A stretch of DNA of 64,000 nt from Xylogone sp. PMI_703 (taxonomy: Eukaryota; Ascomycota; Leotiomycetes): positions 5,208,001-5,272,000 of the forward strand of contig JAJTUQ010000002.1 of assembly GCA_021399445.1 (NCBI GenBank). The letters run 5' to 3'. The position numbers were made by a program, and so were the translations under genes. The notes beneath the pieces are model-generated. The model was not told where the DNA came from. It worked only from the letters and a program-made list of their open reading frames with translations, and ran no database searches. This document shows, one piece after another, positions 31,287 through 54,763 of the stretch. How positions within the stretch are numbered: position 1 is the first letter of the stretch; every line of letters begins with the position of its first letter.

Positions 31287-33676
31287 CTAAACCACTTTAG
31301 GATGTCCCTGATCTAAATATGGACCTGGTAGCGTGTATTCTTCATTATTTATAACTGTTGTATCAGCACCATTTTCAAGAAGTAACTTCACTACTTCACC
31401 ATGCCCATTATCTGAGGCTGACTTTAACGGCGTCCATCCAGTATTGCTTGCAGTTGTTATATCAGCTCCTTTGCCAAGAAGCAGCTTGACAACCTCAATA
31501 TAACCATTATATGAAGCTAAGTGTAATGGTGTCCATCCTCTATTATTTATAATTGTTACATCAGCTCCTTTCTCAAGAAGTAGCTTAACAACCTCAATAT
31601 GTCCATTATATGAAGCTAAGTGTAATGGCGTCCATCTTCTATTGGATAGAATTGTTATATCAGCTCCGTTTTCAAGAAGTAGTTTGACCACTCCTATATG
31701 TCCCTCAGCTGCAGCTGACAAGAGTGGAGCCGGAGAGTCGTCTGACGCTATTACTGGCGAATTAGCAGGAATATCTTCAAGGAAGAGCAGCTGACTTTCG
31801 TCAGGCCTCTCGCCAGTGGCAAATCGTTGAGTGTAAAGCCTCGCATTTTCACAATAGCCTTCGAAGTCCTCAAGGTATTTCTGAGCAATCTCTGGAACAA
31901 GCGGATCGTCTACATCAGGAGTTGCTAGAAGCCCACATAATGCAACAAGGAGCGAACCCAAGGTCCATTCTGCATCCGAAGATTTTGCGCGATACCACTG
32001 TGCGGCTTGACCGTTGACTGGACTCCTGTGAACGTCTGCACGAAAAGAAGAATCCCACTTCTCTTTATAATCGGCACAAATATGTCCCTGTGGAGAGATG
32101 TTTGGATGGTAGATCTTAGTGTGGAATCTCAACATCAGCGGGGCATGAGGATCATTCTCCGACAATTTGACAGTAATCCAGAATATACCACCTTCATAGG
32201 GCGTCTCTGGAGGTCCTTCAATGCTTGCCAACACCTTGTTTAGGCTCTCGTTGAGAGGAACAGCACTGATGAATGGCACTTTACCAGCCCTGATATTGCG
32301 GAGCTCTATAAACATTCGTTTCACAGCAGATGAGCTAGAATCAGCATGTACCAGGATCTTGCCAGAATGGTTGAGCCAGTAATGTTCATTCTGGTTCTTT
32401 ATTTTTGACCTCTCACCGTAATGAATGTCTCCTGCTGTAAAGCTTAAAGGCTGGCGTGGTTTTGCCTTTTTGATAACACTAGTCATTAGACGTTGATTTT
32501 GTGAGAGTACGCCTTGTGGTCCTGATTCAATAAACTCTTCCATCCCCTCGAGCTCACGCTGAAAGCTGCATGTTCTTCCGGTTTGTATACAATTAGTACA
32601 GGTATTTTGTTCGGTATCAGTGATACATTTGTAACGTTCGTCTAGGCACTCTTCACACGATCGACTCGTTGTAAAAGCGTCCTTCGGCGGGAGTTCTAGC
32701 CGAGTTACATGGGGGATTTTATCCTTGGAATCAGACTTGATAGATTTCGGCCAGGCACCTGGTAATGGAGGCTCTTGACTGAGAAGACTCTTCGGTTCTA
32801 TTGATGGGCTAGTTTTTGCAGTAACAAACGATAGTATTGTACTTCGAAAGTTCGATGTCGAAGATAGTGTTTGTTGTTCACTAACCGATTCTGTCACCGC
32901 AATTAGACGTCGACTTGCGGTATCTGAGATGTTGTACTGCGAAAAGCGATTGCTCGAAGAATGATGACTTGAAGAAGCATCACGAAGTAGTTTAAGGCTT
33001 TCCACATCTGAAATGCTTTCGATTTCTTCCCGAAGTCGTGCGTGTTGTCCTTGCAATAAGCCTAGAGCCGTTGTGATATTTTCAAGGCCATCTACAAACT
33101 TTTCGAGTCGGTTGATCACACGCTCGAATTTCTTAGCATCGTGTATTGCCCATCGAGTGACATTCCAAGCCGAGGTCTCCTTCTGGTGCCTCCGTATACG
33201 GCTCTTGAATCGATCGAATGATCCTTTGAAGATATTGATCCCTACAGAGCTCGACCCCTCTAAGCCCTGCAAAGCGTTCGCCTTTACACCGTATCTCTCG
33301 TCTACACGGCTAGCTTCATCAAGGAGTGATTTTATATTACAGAGTATTCGTTCCACTTCTGGCTTAATATCTGATCGATTAAGATTTTTATCATATTGCA
33401 GACGACATCCATCATGGGTATTAGCCCAACAGATTCGCCCCAGAGACCAAATCGAACACGTTGTAATGAGAACTACATCCGGTTCAAAGTCATTAGAGAG
33501 CTCTCCATAAAGCCTACTAGTCAAAGTCTTACCAGTGCAAGAAGCTGCTCGTAATCCTTGCTGAAATTCTTGCCTGTAACAACAATATCGAAGCATTCAA
33601 TACAAGTAGTAAACAAGGCTGCAATACTGATGGCGCTCAAGGTCAAACCTGCGATACCTTCAGCAGCGGCCGACAT
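31287..33676 (-). CDS. HeLo / Zn2Cys6-like / ubiquitin-conjugating E2 / ankyrin fusion (one apparent frameshift)
   Basis: Exon 1 is 33676-33533 (MSAAAEGIAGLTLSAISIAA..., a HeLo prion-inhibition-type start). A 60-nt intron (GTAAGA to ATGTAG) leads to 33472, where FSLQRVRFGLWGESVGL continues the HeLo domain. One base appears missing at about 33422-33424. The next frame then reads DGCRLQYDKN and stays open to 31287, so a repaired product would be about 778 residues. Further domains in order: a C-x2-C-x6-C-x8-C-x2-C-x6-C cluster (codons at 32560-32660); an E2 fold (about 32320-31815) with YEGGIFWITV, YHPNISPQGHICADY and DDPLVPEIAQKY, catalytic Cys codon 32078-32076; and about four ankyrin repeats to the C-terminus. 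HeLo domains drive membrane-linked cell death or incompatibility in fungi. The ankyrin array would be the sensor, and ubiquitin transfer is inferred from the intact E2 core. Confidence 0.8.
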
Positions 33677-34740
33677 CTTTTCAAATCACTTGCAGAATTC
33701 ATAATCCTGCTGCTAAGTCTTTTAACTAATGTGAGGAAGCCGCAAGTTTCGCGACGAGGCTTTGAAGGCTGTACAATATGTTGTCACTGAGTATGGTGGA
33801 TCTGTAGCCACTCACGATCAAGTGAGCTGCTCTCCAATGATTGGTTCAAAAAACACCATAGCTTTATGCGGTTATGAGCAACAAGTTACGCTTATAGAGC
33901 AGGAATCTGAACACTTTTATATGATTCTCACTGTAAGCTAGTGTTTATTGAGAATTCTAACCATACTTGACATGCTTCTACCTCACAAAGATCATAGATC
34001 ATATCAGTATATATATTCATGTGTGTAATTGTTTTGACAGGATTTAGCGGTCAAACCCCCAGAACTAAGATTACATTTATAAAAATACAAGATTATACGT
34101 ACAAGATAATGAACAGTTAATGTTATAAATCTCTTATTGTTTGCTCATATTCTTATTAAGAAAGGAAAAAAGCCAATCAGGATGATAGTATTCCAAATGA
34201 CAAAAGAGTTCGGGCCATACAGCTATCGCGTCGTGGCGTGTGCTGTATGCCTTACATCTCCCCTAATATATCAGTTTCTTATAAGTTCACTATTAGGATT
34301 GGCCCCCGTCTCCAGAACAGTAATTGACCTTACCACTCTGCCATGAGAGGCGCTGTTTACTGTTCTTTGCATAGGTCTTGCCTACTTAGGACTATATTGG
34401 AAGGGAACGAATTTAAGGGGGAAACGAGCGAGGTCGCAAGTGTCAAGGTGAACTCTCATAACCTCACTGTATCTAAATCTTTCAAGAAGGTACCCTCTCG
34501 CACGATTATTAGCACTCATTCCTAACTTCATCAAATTGCATACATCTTTCAGGTTGATTTCTATTGGCTCTATTTATAGTCTATCAAGGTATTCGCATTT
34601 TGACTGAGTAGGATGGTTTCTTACCCTTCCCGCTACTCTTCTTTACTCTTCTTTATTTAATTATAACATCCGTAATTGATAGTATTATTCACTCTTACAT
34701 CTTAATTACTTGTTACTATAGCCGATTCATTACGGCTGAG
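33677..34740. other. Intergenic region between divergent E2 fusion and F-box genes
   Basis: About 1.06 kb, AT-rich, probably the shared or back-to-back promoters. No gene is supported within it. Confidence 0.55.
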
Positions 34741-35795
34741 ATGGCTTTTATGAAATTGCTTCGTCGCCCTAAGTCTAAACCATCATTTGTTGTGAGAGGG
34801 GTGAGGCGAACTTTACCGATACTGCGAGCAGGTTTAAAGGAGTCATTACTGTGGAAGCTGCCAGAAGAAATCATCAGAGAAATTATTAAGTTCCTACCAT
34901 CGTACTCGGCAGCGTGCTTCACCATTTGCTGCCAGAGTATATACCTTATCCTGGGAAATCAGTCTCTCAAGAAATTGAAAGTATCAAATCAACAACTCTG
35001 GCGTTTTCTATACTATCTACAAAAAGATCTAGTCGACTACGTCGCATGTTGTCATTGTTACAGCTCCATAATATTAAGAATGCTGAAAAATATATTGGTG
35101 GCCCGTCTAGAAGTATAAAATGCAGAACAAAAGACTATGAAATTGGAGTGGATGTACAATTCCATCCTAACTTCAGCTACACGGTATTTGCTATGGCAAT
35201 GAAGCGTTATCGACAGGGAAGAGACTATAGTGAGCTTTTACAGCTCCTATCCTGGTCCAATCCGCCATATAAAGATGGCACTGATCCAAGAGAAGTAGCA
35301 GAGCACCATGTTTGGATCGATAGTGGTGATATGATCTTTCGTTTTCGGGGTACTTGGATATCTTCCAAAAACAAAGAGGGGCTCTTCTTTGAAAAGCTCG
35401 TTTGCCCTCACATACACGTATCCTGTATTGGCTGGGCTAAGGTAGGCACAAGATTGAATATTATGTGGCGGTACGTGGGTGAACTGCCTTACACGGCTCA
35501 TCCGTGTGAACCGGCTGAAGGGATAAAGGAATGCAAATATTGCTCTGCATCATTCGACATACGTATTTTATCAAATGAAGCGGAAACTACGGCTACCTTG
35601 ACATCATGGAGAAATCTCGGGCAAGCTATAGATCTGGCAGATCAAAAGTGGTTGCGCAATCTAAGAAAGGTAGGTTATACGGATATGTGGAGATATACTG
35701 CCAAGCGCTGCTGGTGCTTCTGGGATATGCCTTGGGACGAGGCCCCAATAGAAGTTGCGTCTTTCTGGGTGGCAAACCAAGAGACTCGAAAATAG
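34741..35795 (+). CDS. F-box protein with one apparent frameshift
   Basis: The first frame starts at ATG 34741 and carries an F-box: WKLPEEIIREIIKFLPSYSA, then CFTICCQSIYLILGNQSLKK. It continues to DLVDYVACCHCY near 35059. The family then needs a CxxC-xx-LH motif, which appears as QLHNIKNAEKYIGG in the next frame from 35061. That frame is open to 35795 and includes VDVQFHPNFSYTVFAMAMKR, typical of the same fungal F-box family, and a second CxxC pair (ECKYCSASFDIRI). One base seems lost at 35056-35062; no intron can explain it. Intact, the protein would be ~350 residues. It is divergent from the E2 fusion gene. F-box proteins recruit substrates to SCF ligases, so a link with the neighbouring E2 is conceivable but unproven. 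Confidence 0.68.
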
Positions 35796-36253
35796 TAATT
35801 GATGAAGAATACGATGTGGCTTTCAGACTGAAGAAACAAAATGAAAGTGTAGTTACAATGGTGGTTATAAGTTGAAGCAGGGATAAGGATGCAGATGAGA
35901 AGTACAGAAACGGACAATGTGGATTGGAGATTGTCAAGCCTGCCACAGGGTATTGTCGTTCTCCGCAAAAATCCATCTAGTTTATTACCAAGGAAAATCA
36001 TAGTTCTGATCATTGAGAGGTGAATGGTCTTAGGTCAAGTGCAAACTTAGAAAAGTAGAATCGACCAGCTCATATTGCACCTTTCGCTGAAGTCGCTTAA
36101 GTCCATGGAATTATATTACATCTCATTCAACACCACATAAGCTGTACTCCAAGCTTCAGATATGTAAGTTTAAGAGACAATACAGGTGATATGCTTCACA
36201 TATGTCACAATAGCAATTTATAAACAAAAATACTTCATTCTATCTATCAAGTC
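35796..36253. other. Intergenic
   Basis: AT-rich spacer and promoter of the HET gene. Nothing else is seen. Confidence 0.6.
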
Positions 36254-37231
36254 ATGCCTCCAAAGCCCTCTTTCCAATATGACACCTTGCCATCCCCAGA
36301 TTCAGTCCGCATTCTCTCACTCCTCCCGTCTCCGGACATCTCAAGCCCTTTGCAAGTTCATCTCCAGACAACAGAACTCTCCGAAATAGAGCACGATATA
36401 ATAGACCACTACACAGCTCTCTCCTACGTCTGGGGTGACCCCACACTCCAATGCCCCATCACCATCAATGGCCACCCCTTCACCATAACTGCAAGTCTGA
36501 ACTCAGCACTCCGTTCCCTCCGCGATGCAACTCGCACGCACAGAATCTGGGCCGACGCAATCTGTATCAATGAAGACGACGTGGCCGAAAGAAACGCCCA
36601 AGTCGCACAAATGGACAGGACCTACAAACTCGCCATGCACACCGTGATATACCTCTCTCCAGACCTGACTCCCGAGCGAGAAGAAATCCTCCAAGCTGCA
36701 GAGGGCACCAAGCAATACGGCACAGGTCACTACTCGCAAGACTACCTCGACGAGGTCATCGACCTAGCTGAAACCCACCTCATGACCCTCCCATGGTTCC
36801 GCCGCGTCTGGATCTTCCAGGAACTCATTCTCTCGCGCGATCCCTGGGTGCAAATCGGGCCCAGACGCATCCGCTGGGACGACCTGTGCTACTGCTTGCT
36901 CACACCCAGTGCCCCTAGAAGTTACGGTCAGCAAAGGCCGCCTGGACTAAGGATCCTAGATGAGATGAATTCCTCGAGGACAGGGTCTAATGCGGGGTTG
37001 TTCTTCAGTCTGTTGCTTTCCAGGAGAGGTCTGGGAGCTACTGATGCGAGAGATGTGGTGTTTGCGCATTTTGGCGTCGCGTCGGATCGGTGGGTTTGGA
37101 AGCAGAATGTGCCGATTGATTATGCGGCAAGTGTGGCGGGGGTGTATGAGGAAGTTGCGGTTTATGCGCTTGGGACAGTTGGAGTCAAGGAGTTGTTTCG
37201 GTGCTTGGACGATTATTATGATGGGGATGGC

Positions 37232-37286
<55 letters not shown>

Positions 37287-38305
37287 GGAAAGGGAAATTG
37301 AAAAGAAGAGAGGGGCTAGCTTCCTGGGCGCCGGATTGGAGTCGAGCTCAGAGTCATGCCGTCAGGATGTATGTTGATAATGCGTGGAGTCGGAAGGCGC
37401 TGGAGAGGGAGAAGTACATGTTCATTATGGAAAAGCCGAGGGTGTTGGCTGTCTTAGGGTACGATGTTGATGTTGTAAAAGATTTGAGTTTGGTACTTCC
37501 TGAGACAAGAAGCTTGAAGACCCCTCCTGGAGAGAGAACGGCATATCAGGATGCTATCAATGCGTTAAGGGCTCTATATGCGAAGCATGGAGGATCGTAT
37601 GCGTCTGGGGATGAGAATGGCCAGTACACGCACATTACTTTAAAAGGGGAAGAAGAGAAAGAAGAACATGCGAGGCTTTGTCGAATGGCATGGGACGAAT
37701 GGGAACATATCTTCAGCGAGGAGTTGCCTTCTCAGCTTCCCTCATCTTCATCTTCTAAAACTCAGGAAGCCCTCGAATCCAATTCCCGTTTCGTTCAATT
37801 CCTCAAATCTTACATCCCTATCCGGTCCCAACGGCAGAAGCTCTTCTTCGGTGGCGGTTCCCAGGGTCTAGAATCCCAGATGTGGCTCTATCTCTACCCG
37901 CCAGGCGACCTTCCCAATTCTCTAACTGACCGTCGGCTGGCCTCAACATCCAAAGGCCGTCTTGCTCTCGTCCCGGCACAGGCCCGAGCTGGAGACATAG
38001 CTATGTACATCCCCAGCAGCGATGTGTGCTATCTGGTCCGAGAGTGCCATAATAGCCCTAGAGTTCCTGAGGAAATGAGACCTGAACTAGAGCGTACAAT
38101 CAGGGATGAGTATAGGGGAAGAAGTCCGCAGGCTGAGCAGCCTAAGAAACCATACGTTACTTCGTTTGAGGAATTATTTGATAAGAAAAGGACAAAGAAA
38201 GTGCCTATTGGCTATTTCGAGGTAGTTGGGGAGTGCTATGTTGAGGATGATGTTGGATGGGCTCGCAATGGGGATTATGGACACAAGGTATTTGTGTTGG
38301 TTTGA
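36254..38305 (+). CDS. HET-domain heterokaryon-incompatibility protein
   Basis: Single exon of 683 residues. The three HET blocks are clear in the N-terminal third: YTALSYVWGDP (~56-66), RIWADAICINEDDVAERNAQ (~98-117) with MDRTYKLA after it, and LPWFRRVWIFQELILSRDP (~179-197). HET domains are TIR-like cell-death inducers that act when fungal individuals of different genotype fuse. A (GAT)18 microsatellite encodes 18 Asp residues at about 327-344, separating the HET region from a C-terminal part with no recognised repeats. The protein lacks an NACHT or WD40 sensor, so it is the HET-only kind that may act as an executor for another protein. It lies in the same accessory block as the HeLo-E2 gene. 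Confidence 0.92.
37232..37285 (+). repeat. (GAT)18 microsatellite in HET gene
   Basis: A perfect 54-bp run of 18 GAT codons encodes poly-Asp. Length change would keep the frame if it occurs in whole units. Confidence 0.95.
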
Positions 38306-52339: not shown

Positions 52340-54763
52340 ATGATGGCTGATATACCAATTCCATTGGTACAATCTGCAGCCTCACTGGAGCAACAGCCTT
52401 CATCCACGCCTGCCGTCACCCTTCGTGCTGAGCCCGGGAAGCCACGGATGTACTCGGAGGACGATTGGGAGGCGCAACGCTCGGTAATCAAGCAGCTATA
52501 TGATGTTGAAAACAGGCCGCTCAAGGAGGTGGTTGATATTCTCGGCCGCACTCGGAGCTTTTTTGCTACGTATGACCACGTCTCTCCGAGTGCTTTTTAA
52601 TTGTTTATTCTTGATTTTATCATTTTACATGACAAATATTCCCCGACAGTTATTTGATTTAGTTTTGTCTAGCTGATGTCGATGGCTGATATGTGATGAT
52701 GTGGACCTTCTGACCAATGTTATTCTTCTACTAGTGAGAGGCAGTATAAGCGCCGGATAAGCAAATGGGGCCTTGATAAGAATGTCAAGAAATCTGAGAT
52801 GCAAGCGATTGTGCGAAAGCAACAAACACGGATAGGTGAAGATAAAGAGAGTGCATTCCGAGTTCGAGGTCGTGAGGTGGAGCCTTTGAAGATTCAGAGG
52901 TGGATGAGACAGCATGGAGATGGAGACGGAGACGTACTCAGTCGCTCACCTTCGAGTTCGAGACCAGGTACGTTTTTGTTTTCTGACGCTTTGCTCCGTT
53001 TTTGTATACATATTATCTCCTCCAGATATTGATATAATGTTGATGAATTGTCGAATGAAGCAACTCCCTCCGATATCTCGTGCTATACACCTAAGCGTGC
53101 TGGTTCAGATACACCCCTCCCGAGCTTCAATAGCAATGTGGAGGAGTTTGCTTTGAACCAGCAATCGACGCCACTTTCTCTTCCTAACAATTCTCCAACT
53201 CGTTATGATAGCACCGACTTCTCACCTGGCACTGTGACATCCCCATTACCGTCCCCTGTGCACCCGTCACCAAGACATACTGATCAAACTTCTATTAATG
53301 GGTATTTCGGCTCTCCGCAAATGAAGATGGAGCCTGAACTTCATTCTCCTCGATCGTCATGGCCGACCCCTGTTCAGTCAGAGCTGACTCCTCCCGATGA
53401 AATTGACAAGATCATTTGGCAAGACCAGCTGGAGGCCTCAAAATTATCACCTTCAAATAGCCATATCCAGTTATATCAACCGCGATCTGCAACTCAAATT
53501 GTAACTAAGGATGACTTGGGTGGAGTACCTTCTAAGATGGCACCCCCTCGGCAATCTAGATATAAAGAGAAAGAGGAGATAGAATATCGGCGGAGATTAC
53601 CAGAGCTCGAGCGTATTTATGGAATTGACCATCCTGCGGCGATAGATACTCTGGGCCGCTTAGCAACCATCGTTGCACAACAAGGCAGATACGAAGAGGC
53701 GCTTCCTCTTCTCCGTCAGGTAGCACGCACGTGTCAAAGAGTATACGGACGAAGTGATAGGAGAACTTTCGAAGCGCTTACTGATATGGTGATCCTCTTC
53801 AAAGTCCAAGGTAAACTTTCCAGTGCAGAAGCACTCGGCCGATCCGTTTTAGCAGAAGCAACTACACACCTTGGACCTGAGGATCCGATTACCATGTTGC
53901 TAGCCACTAATATTGCGAGCGTACTGACAGATATGTGCAAATTCGATGAGGCAGAGGATATGCAATGGGATCTCATGCATAGACAGATTCTCTCCCTGGG
54001 ACTGGAGCACCGGACGACAGTCATAACAATGAGGACCCTGGCTGCGACGTTGATGAAACTTGGGAAAACGGAAGAATGCACAAAGTTATGTTTAATCCTA
54101 TCACCAGTTGTGGAAAAAGGGACGAGCCTTGACCAGTGTGAGGTGTTGAATACGAAGGATCAACTAGCCTGTGTCTTCGGGCATATACGGAGATATCAGG
54201 AAGCTGAAGTTTTGCAGCGTGAGGTCTTCAAGCAGCGGAAACTTTTGCAAGGAATGGAACATCCTGCAACGCTATGCACGCTGGCAAACCTGGCAGAGAC
54301 CTTGCGTCAGCAGAATAAACTGGATGAGAGTAGATCAACACGCCAAGAGGTGCTTAAAGGACAGACAGAAATTTTAGGGCCGGATCATCCAGAAACCCTC
54401 ATGAGCTTAGCCAGCTTAGCAAGAACCCTTCTAGACTTGGGAAACTTTGACGAGGCCAAAGAGCTAGCAATCAAAGCCTTGAAAGGCCAAGAGGCAACCT
54501 TAGGGCCAGAGCACTATCATAGTATGATGTCTTGTTCTCTGCTTGCTAAGTGTTTAGACCTTCAGAACAGCTTTGTTGAAGCATTCCCTTTATATCAGCG
54601 GGTATTGAGCGGGCTATCAAAAATGAAGGGAGAAAAGAGTCCAGAAGTTCAAGAAATCTCGGCATGGTACCTATCCATGCTGGGGAAGATGAATCAGGAC
54701 GGAATGAGAAGAATGGAGATGACACTGAGTAGAACTCAGATGGGAGATACTAAGAGATTATGA
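52340..54763 (+). CDS. Clr5-domain protein with tetratricopeptide repeats
   Basis: Exons 52340-52569, 52735-52967 and probably 53061-54763 (721 residues). The N-terminal Clr5 domain reads SEDDWEAQRSVIKQLYD, then EVVDIL, RSFFAT, and across the intron ERQYKRRISKWGLDKN. This domain is found at the start of many fungal proteins and in the fission-yeast silencing factor Clr5. A Ser/Pro/Thr-rich linker follows. From about residue 330, kinesin-light-chain-type TPRs of ~42 residues repeat, with GRYEEALPLLRQV, GKLSSAEALGRSVL, FDEAEDMQWDL, RYQEAEVLQREVF, NKLDESRSTRQEVL and FDEAKELAIKAL. The second intron's acceptor is uncertain: the better CCAG at 53025 breaks the frame, while a weak AAG at 53060 keeps it. 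It may act as a scaffold, but its role is unknown. Confidence 0.82.

What the first reader, a model, noticed from the sequence alone, without database searches (positions are those of the whole stretch)
31287..33676. HeLo death-type domain fused to a ubiquitin-conjugating enzyme and ankyrin repeats
One gene carries, in order, a HeLo-type N-terminus, a Zn2Cys6-like cysteine cluster, an E2 domain and ankyrin repeats. The E2 core keeps HPN (YHPNISPQG), the catalytic Cys (HICADY, codon 32078-32076) and the C-terminal DDPLVPEIAQKY, with a ~24-residue insert after the active site. HeLo domains are known effectors of fungal incompatibility and cell death, and ankyrin arrays are known sensors of NLR-like proteins. 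An active-looking E2 placed where a NACHT or NB-ARC switch usually sits suggests ubiquitin transfer as the signalling step. That last point is inference.
Basis: partly seen in the sequence, partly recalled or inferred. Interest (0 to 1): 0.88.

Follow-up and report, generated by a model that had tools for sequence, protein, structure and literature searches.

The report
Fungal death domain fused to E2
This fungal gene joins a HeLo domain, a type known to kill fungal cells by attacking membranes, to a ubiquitin-conjugating enzyme domain and ankyrin repeats; it belongs to a wider fungal family in which ubiquitin transfer would likely control cell death, although the HeLo reading frame is interrupted in this copy.

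Summary
The architecture is real. On the minus strand, exon 1 (33676-33533) matches the HET-s N-terminal helix. One uninterrupted 769-codon frame carries the rest of HeLo, a CX2CX6CX8CX2CX6C cluster, an E2 and four ankyrin repeats. The E2 fold is supported by profile, sequence and predicted structure; HPN and the catalytic Cys (32078-32076) are kept. GenBank holds it as a hypothetical protein of Xylogone sp. PMI_703.

Correction: the HeLo frame changes near 33416-33410. No AG occurs in 33472-33372, so no GT-AG intron ends there. GenBank's model uses another intron that drops conserved HeLo sequence.

It is not a one-off. Three E2-centred searches listed 182 proteins; HeLo is in 96 of the first 120 and the catalytic Cys in 167 of 168. 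The E2 core is the most conserved part. A variable insert of about 26 residues stands in the E3-binding loop, tails vary, and no listed protein shows NACHT or NB-ARC.

Likely mechanism, inferred: a HeLo executioner controlled by its own E2. The held papers I searched gave no description. New variant of a known kind.

The parts
33533..33676 (-). Exon 1: HeLo N-terminal hydrophobic helix (MSAAAEGIAGLTLSAISIAALFTTCIECFDIVV...)
   Evidence: PF14479 E 1.1e-11, profile positions 1-38; phmmer to HET-s chain 2wvn_A E 6.4e-6
33473..33532 (-). Intron 1, GTAAGA...TAG, 60 bases
   Evidence: Boundaries agree with the GenBank model P0001; four relatives read straight across it
33416..33472 (-). HeLo, conserved block FSLQRVRFGLWGESVGLIP in the first frame
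   Evidence: tblastn with P0014, P0021, P0027, P0042
33410..33416 (-). Place where the conserved HeLo reading changes frame (approximate)
   Evidence: tblastn frames 1 and 3 meet here with P0014; with the other three relatives the second frame is extended further upstream, to 33422 or, through gaps, 33458, so the point is not exact; no AG in 33472-33372
32985..33410 (-). HeLo, remaining helices, in the long open frame
   Evidence: PF14479 E 1.2e-24, profile positions 62-205
33282..33340 (-). Second intron of the GenBank model only; removes sequence that is coding in relatives
   Evidence: P0001 equals exons 33676-33533, 33472-33341, 33281-31287; relatives align through it
32568..32657 (-). CX2CX6CX8CX2CX6C cluster, Zn2Cys6-like spacing
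   Evidence: PF00172 16.9 bits, below the cut-off of 21; a similar spacing in 56 of 168 proteins
31821..32408 (-). Ubiquitin-conjugating (E2) fold; Pfam match 32306-31833
   Evidence: PF00179 E 1.4e-23; UBE2D1 E 6.9e-28; AlphaFold2 model with 10-residue blocks of the core at pLDDT 84-97 and of the insert at 56-74; Foldseek to UbcH5 TM(target) about 0.9
32076..32078 (-). Predicted catalytic cysteine codon (HIC)
   Evidence: Cys in 119 of 120 by alignment, 167 of 168 by motif
31968..32054 (-). 29-residue stretch in place of the UBE2D S-P-A loop
   Evidence: mean pairwise identity 0.24 against 0.66-0.69 for the E2 core
31287..31715 (-). Four ankyrin repeats to the stop codon; 99-base tandem array 31349-31703
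   Evidence: PF12796 E 3.4e-56, four Ank stretches; TRF 3.6 copies, 78% matches

Best explanation
The gene encodes a member of a fungal HeLo-E2 family, with an ankyrin tail and a reading-frame interruption inside HeLo in this assembly, and intact members likely act as cell-death executioners whose built-in E2, predicted to be active, would control the HeLo domain by ubiquitin transfer. Shown: domains, order, one shared frame for most of the protein, E2 fold by profile and prediction, near-invariant catalytic residues, differing tails, and the broken HeLo frame. Inferred: (1) HeLo inserts its N-terminal helix in the plasma membrane as HET-S does; (2) the ankyrin, TPR or other tail senses or recruits a partner and clusters the protein; (3) the E2 is charged by the usual E1 and, lacking the usual S-P-A loop for E3s, passes ubiquitin to something held close in space, most simply the HeLo domain of its own or a neighbouring molecule; (4) this sets the threshold of killing, as ubiquitination of the MLKL HeLo domain appears to do in mammals. 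The copy in this window would be at most partly functional as an executioner unless splicing bypasses the break.
For: HeLo and E2 Pfam matches in one frame; E2 fold; HeLo N-terminus matching HET-s. Of the best 120 of 236 proteins of the first search, 120 have UQ_con and 96 have HeLo, although only the E2 region was used as query. Catalytic Cys in 167 of 168. In 38 members chosen as full-length, the E2 core is the most conserved region (0.69 and 0.66 mean pairwise identity, HeLo 0.58 and 0.53, insert 0.24), which argues for kept catalysis. A [WF][SNTD]P[AST] loop between Cys and PLVPEI is found in only 4 of the 155 proteins that have both anchors. P0180 has HeLo-E2 without the insert, so the insert was gained or lost within the family. 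Ankyrin tails in 5 and TPR tails in 2 listed proteins. Literature: HeLo is a membrane-targeting death domain (passages of PMC12881547); MLKL's HeLo domain is K63-ubiquitinated through ITCH, and a non-ubiquitinable lysine mutant shows increased necroptotic activity (passages of PMC8816944); HeLo is enriched among genes up-regulated in Podospora incompatibility, and ubiquitin-degradation domains among genes up-regulated in both Podospora and Neurospora (passages of PMC3689799).
Against: No activity, interaction or expression data. The HeLo frame is interrupted in this copy. HeLo was not found in 24 of the first 120; some of these start inside the protein, others were not resolved. The searches excluded proteins under 0.55 times the query length, so stand-alone E2s of this type could not appear. 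AlphaFold2 models HeLo only moderately (whole model pLDDT 66.7, pTM 0.44), and HeLo-E2 contacts were not examined. P0180 lacks both the insert and S-P-A, so loss of S-P-A is not tied to the insert. Other E2 loops can also bind E3s, so E3 independence is a guess. HeLo could serve only as an anchor.
Confidence: 0.42

Rival explanations
1. HeLo is only a membrane or assembly anchor, and the E2 is the effector: on clustering it ubiquitinates other proteins (a partner NLR, membrane cargo or non-self protein), without pore formation.
For: The E2 core is more conserved than HeLo; tails differ as targeting modules do; MLKL with ubiquitin on its HeLo domain has non-lethal endosomal roles (passages).
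Against: The N-terminal helix, the part of HET-S needed to attack membranes, is kept at high identity.
Confidence: 0.27
2. The gene in this window is a decaying pseudogene of the family, so nothing works here although relatives do (this concerns the copy and does not exclude the mechanism for relatives).
For: The HeLo frame is interrupted with no GT-AG intron that can end at the break.
Against: 769 codons stay open with the E2 catalytic residues kept; GenBank's model has an in-frame alternative; a base error in the assembly is possible.
Confidence: 0.4
3. The E2 is an inactive decoy that baits a viral or fungal attacker of the ubiquitin pathway, like integrated decoys of plant NLRs.
For: Fusion to an immune-type effector and NLR-type repeats.
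Against: Catalytic Cys, HPN and the DDPLVPEIA stretch are nearly invariant across the aligned proteins, more than a decoy would need.
Confidence: 0.08
4. HeLo-E2 is an artefact of joining neighbouring genes in annotation.
For: Nothing beyond the unusual domain pair.
Against: Most of HeLo, the E2 and the ankyrins lie in one unspliced frame here, and the same pair recurs in many fungal and metagenome sequences.
Confidence: 0.01

Closest known systems
HET-S and other fungal HeLo executioners (PF14479; PDB 2wvn, 2wvo)
   Same: N-terminal HeLo domain with the hydrophobic first helix
   Different: An E2 follows in place of the C-terminal prion-forming repeats; no prion-forming domain appears among the Pfam matches of the window pieces, amyloid motifs were not searched otherwise
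MLKL and fungal HeLo-kinase proteins
   Same: Killing helical domain N-terminal to a second, signalling-type domain; other HeLo genes of this genome have C-termini that look kinase-like by eye
   Different: The second domain is a predicted active E2; MLKL is ubiquitinated by a separate E3, ITCH
UBE2D / Ubc4-Ubc5 type E2 enzymes
   Same: Fold, HPN, catalytic Cys, DDPLVPEIA
   Different: Long N-terminal extension and a variable insert in place of the S-P-A loop
Fungal NLRs with HeLo-like N-termini and ankyrin, TPR or WD repeats
   Same: Effector-type N-terminus and NLR-type repeats at the C-terminus
   Different: No NACHT or NB-ARC domain; an E2 lies between

Membership tests
E2 ubiquitin-conjugating enzymes | UBC fold | tested here: met
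   for the window gene; for P0027
E2 ubiquitin-conjugating enzymes | HPN motif and catalytic cysteine at the usual spacing | tested here: met
   HPNISPQGHIC, Cys codon 32078-32076
E2 ubiquitin-conjugating enzymes | Thioester formation with E1 | not testable with these tools
   needs protein
UBE2D-type E2 (RING-dependent) | W-S-P-A E3-binding loop (role recalled, from no call) | tested here: not met
   replaced by a 29-residue stretch; the loop pattern occurs in 4 of 155 relatives with both anchors
HeLo domain proteins (PF14479) | Profile match over the curated cut-off | tested here: met
   45.3 and 87.7 bits against 23.2 for the two pieces
HeLo domain proteins (PF14479) | Domain readable as one spliced frame | tested here: not met
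   frame changes near 33416-33410 without a usable intron; the four relatives compared are intact there. GenBank's model keeps a HeLo match (E 8e-36) but drops conserved sequence
HET-S-type executioner | Membrane-targeting N-terminal helix | tested here: met
   sequence match to 2wvn_A, E 6.4e-6; function not tested
HET-S-type executioner | Adjacent NLR gene and shared amyloid motif | tested here: inconclusive
   no NACHT or NB-ARC among 28 other window ORFs scanned of 51 kept; amyloid motifs not searched
NLR proteins | Central NACHT or NB-ARC domain | tested here: not met
   none in the window gene nor in the Pfam columns of the 182 listed proteins; one, P0116, bears a source name mentioning a P-loop hydrolase, but its column shows only HeLo and UQ_con
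NLR proteins | C-terminal ankyrin, TPR or WD repeats | tested here: met
   ankyrin in the window gene; only 7 of the 182 listed proteins have ankyrin or TPR matches
Fungal Zn2Cys6 cluster | Six cysteines at CX2CX6CX5-12CX2CX6-8C (spacing recalled) | tested here: met
   CX2CX6CX8CX2CX6C at 32657-32568
Fungal Zn2Cys6 cluster | Pfam PF00172 over its cut-off | tested here: not met
   16.9 bits against 21

The most novel reading that the evidence does not exclude
HeLo-E2 proteins are a class of fungal immune or incompatibility switch without a nucleotide-binding domain: a pore-forming executioner and a self-sufficient ubiquitin-transferring enzyme in one chain, with swappable ankyrin, TPR or other sensors, in which E2 chemistry, not ATP binding, decides between life and death.
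Probability: 0.25. Interest if true: 0.86.

Novelty: new variant of a known kind. Interest (0 to 1): 0.64.

Why it matters
A conserved family that hard-wires a ubiquitin E2 to a pore-forming death domain would place ubiquitin signalling inside fungal regulated cell death. In mammals the link runs through a separate E3 acting on MLKL; a fused E2 would give a one-chain version that can be tested by removing a single cysteine in an intact relative. The remodelled E3-binding loop also makes it a candidate E3-independent E2.

Tried and rejected
Tried: a spliced reading of HeLo in one frame; rejected, since there is no AG between 33472 and 33372, and an intron ending later must drop conserved HeLo sequence. 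Tried: gene-model fusion artefact; rejected by the single 769-codon frame and the family. Tried: HeLo-E2 paralogues in the same genome; none found, the other HeLo places and the other E2 places listed do not coincide (the tool scores only its best candidates). Tried: an NLR gene nearby; none among the 28 other ORFs scanned, introns not modelled and 22 of 51 kept ORFs not scanned. Tried: HeLo by structure comparison; the E2 filled the lists, so HeLo is untested by fold. Literature: searches returned no paper; some searches returned papers of which I saw passages of five (PMC12881547, PMC3689799, PMC12258605, PMC9815663, PMC8816944) and the rest as listings only; one search returned one paper (PMC6525431), seen at one passage, which lists both Pfam numbers in separate rows. 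No passage seen describes a HeLo-E2 fusion; no paper was read whole, and most subscription papers and bioRxiv preprints are not held.

Weak points: the tree is a quick one with long rows (P0084, P0180, P0178 among them). 15 of 182 rows were left out (P0182 as unrelated, 14 because they end too near the HPN motif). Counted against all rows, the tail labels need 7 changes; but in the tool's own table, which sets ankyrin rows only against TPR rows, one change suffices, and well-supported branches do not rule out one origin of the ankyrin tail. P0003, which separates the two TPR rows, may be a truncated gene call. The frame break was compared with four relatives only. Rfam and tRNA scans of the window gave nothing.

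Full report
What is in the sequence. The gene is on the minus strand. Exon 1 (33676-33533) encodes the HeLo N-terminus (PF14479 E 1.1e-11) and matches the HET-s structure 2wvn_A (E 6.4e-6). After a 60-base intron (33532-33473), the rest lies almost wholly in one open frame of 769 codons ending at 31287. That frame carries HeLo profile positions 62-205 (E 1.2e-24), a six-cysteine cluster with Zn2Cys6-like spacing but a sub-threshold Pfam score, an E2 (PF00179 E 1.4e-23) and ankyrin repeats (PF12796 E 3.4e-56). The closest solved chains to the E2 are UBE2D1/UbcH5 (E 6.9e-28). In an AlphaFold2 model of the Cys cluster-E2-ankyrin part the E2 core blocks have pLDDT 84-97 and the insert 56-74, and Foldseek places it on UbcH5 with TM(target) about 0.9.

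The broken part. In the four intact relatives compared, HeLo reads on from LWGESVGL(V/I)P to the DKNLDRPDIRP-type block without a break. Here the first block ends at 33416 in one frame and the second starts at about 33410 in another; three of the four alignments extend the second frame a little further upstream, two of them through gaps, so the exact point is open. There is no AG between 33472 and 33372, so no GT-AG intron can end there. The public GenBank model (P0001, Xylogone sp. PMI_703, 756 aa) follows the first frame and then removes 33340-33282 as an intron; I confirmed its exons exactly. That model reads sequence that is in another frame in relatives and drops a conserved stretch, though it still scores as HeLo (E 8e-36). 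Whether this is a mutation, an assembly error or real splicing cannot be told here.

The family. Three searches, with the E2 regions of the window gene, P0119 and P0077 as queries, gave 236, 242 and 106 proteins at E up to 1e-5; 120, 120 and 106 were listed, 182 distinct ids in all. The searches take only proteins of 0.55-1.75 times the query length, so short stand-alone E2s could not appear. Of the first 120, all 120 match UQ_con and 96 match HeLo; some of the 24 others start inside the protein. Named hosts are Leotiomycetes, Sordariomycetes and a few Eurotiomycetes (class names recalled, species names from the calls; Xylogone is in Leotiomycetes). One listed protein, P0182, is a helicase-type protein of Sporobolomyces with an E2 match and no HeLo. 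In this genome I found one HeLo-E2 gene only; several other HeLo loci have C-termini that look kinase-like to me.

The enzyme. HPN is present in 168 of 168 and the catalytic Cys in 167 of 168 (P0001-P0168) by motif; by alignment H, P and N in 117 of 120 and Cys in 119 of 120. P0092 is the one without Cys. In 38 members chosen as full-length the E2 core has the highest mean pairwise identity (0.69 and 0.66), then HeLo (0.58 and 0.53), while the insert (0.24) and Cys cluster (0.22) vary. The 29-residue stretch stands where UBE2D has S-P-A, a loop that RING and HECT E3s use (role recalled). A loop of that type is seen in only 4 of the 155 proteins with both anchors. P0180 has HeLo, linker motifs that look the same by eye, and an E2 without the insert, though also without S-P-A; so the insert changed within the family and loss of S-P-A does not depend on it.

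The tails. Ankyrin tails occur in P0001, P0005, P0135, P0137 and P0178, TPR tails in P0002 and P0004. Single proteins carry kinase, DnaJ, WW or PPIP5K-type matches, and P0181 carries an esterase in front. On a quick tree of 167 of 182 E2 regions, 7 labelled rows need 7 changes when all rows count; set against TPR rows alone, the ankyrin rows need one, and one origin is not ruled out by well-supported branches. The window protein groups with P0002-P0004, two of them TPR forms (SH-aLRT 83), while P0135, P0137 and P0178 lie in distant clades. Tails thus appear to be exchanged, with the caveat of truncated gene calls.

How it likely works. Reported for relatives: HeLo domains attack the plasma membrane through their first helix (PMC12881547, passages), and ubiquitin on the MLKL HeLo domain redirects it, with more killing when it cannot be added (PMC8816944, passages). 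Inferred here: the tail senses or clusters, HeLo acts at the membrane, and the E2 transfers ubiquitin to HeLo or a close partner to set the outcome. The direction of control (restraint or activation) is open. The main rival is that HeLo only anchors an effector E2.

Neighbourhood. The gene is divergently placed to an F-box frame (34612-35115) and lies 2.5 kb from a HET-domain gene (36224-38302). HET genes are incompatibility genes, which fits but does not prove a common role.

Novelty. Both domains and the proteins are in public databases under hypothetical or domain-derived names. The searches of held papers and the passages seen gave no description of a HeLo-E2 fusion. I file it as a new variant of a known kind: a HeLo executioner with a new partner domain.

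Noticed in passing
window 36224-38302 +: HET-domain (heterokaryon incompatibility) gene 2.5 kb from the HeLo-E2 gene (PF06985 E 2.4e-27).
   Followed up: partly
window 34612-35115 +: F-box domain (PF00646 E 2.3e-4) beside the HeLo-E2 gene, divergently transcribed.
   Followed up: no
window 52700-54760 +: Clr5-like stretch (weak, below its cut-off) followed by a TPR array, a possible repeat-protein gene.
   Followed up: no
L001, L002, L004, L006 (own genome): Other HeLo genes of this genome have C-termini that look kinase-like by eye, an MLKL-like arrangement; no domain scan was run.
   Followed up: no
P0014, P0017, P0021 and other members over 1,000 aa: About 400 residues after the E2 without a listed Pfam match, possibly an undescribed C-terminal domain.
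   Followed up: no
P0181 (Talaromyces proteolyticus): Esterase-type domain (DUF676), then HeLo, then an E2 that ends early: a further domain order of the family.
   Followed up: no
P0180: HeLo-E2 protein with a canonical-length E2 lacking the insert, a possible early form.
   Followed up: partly
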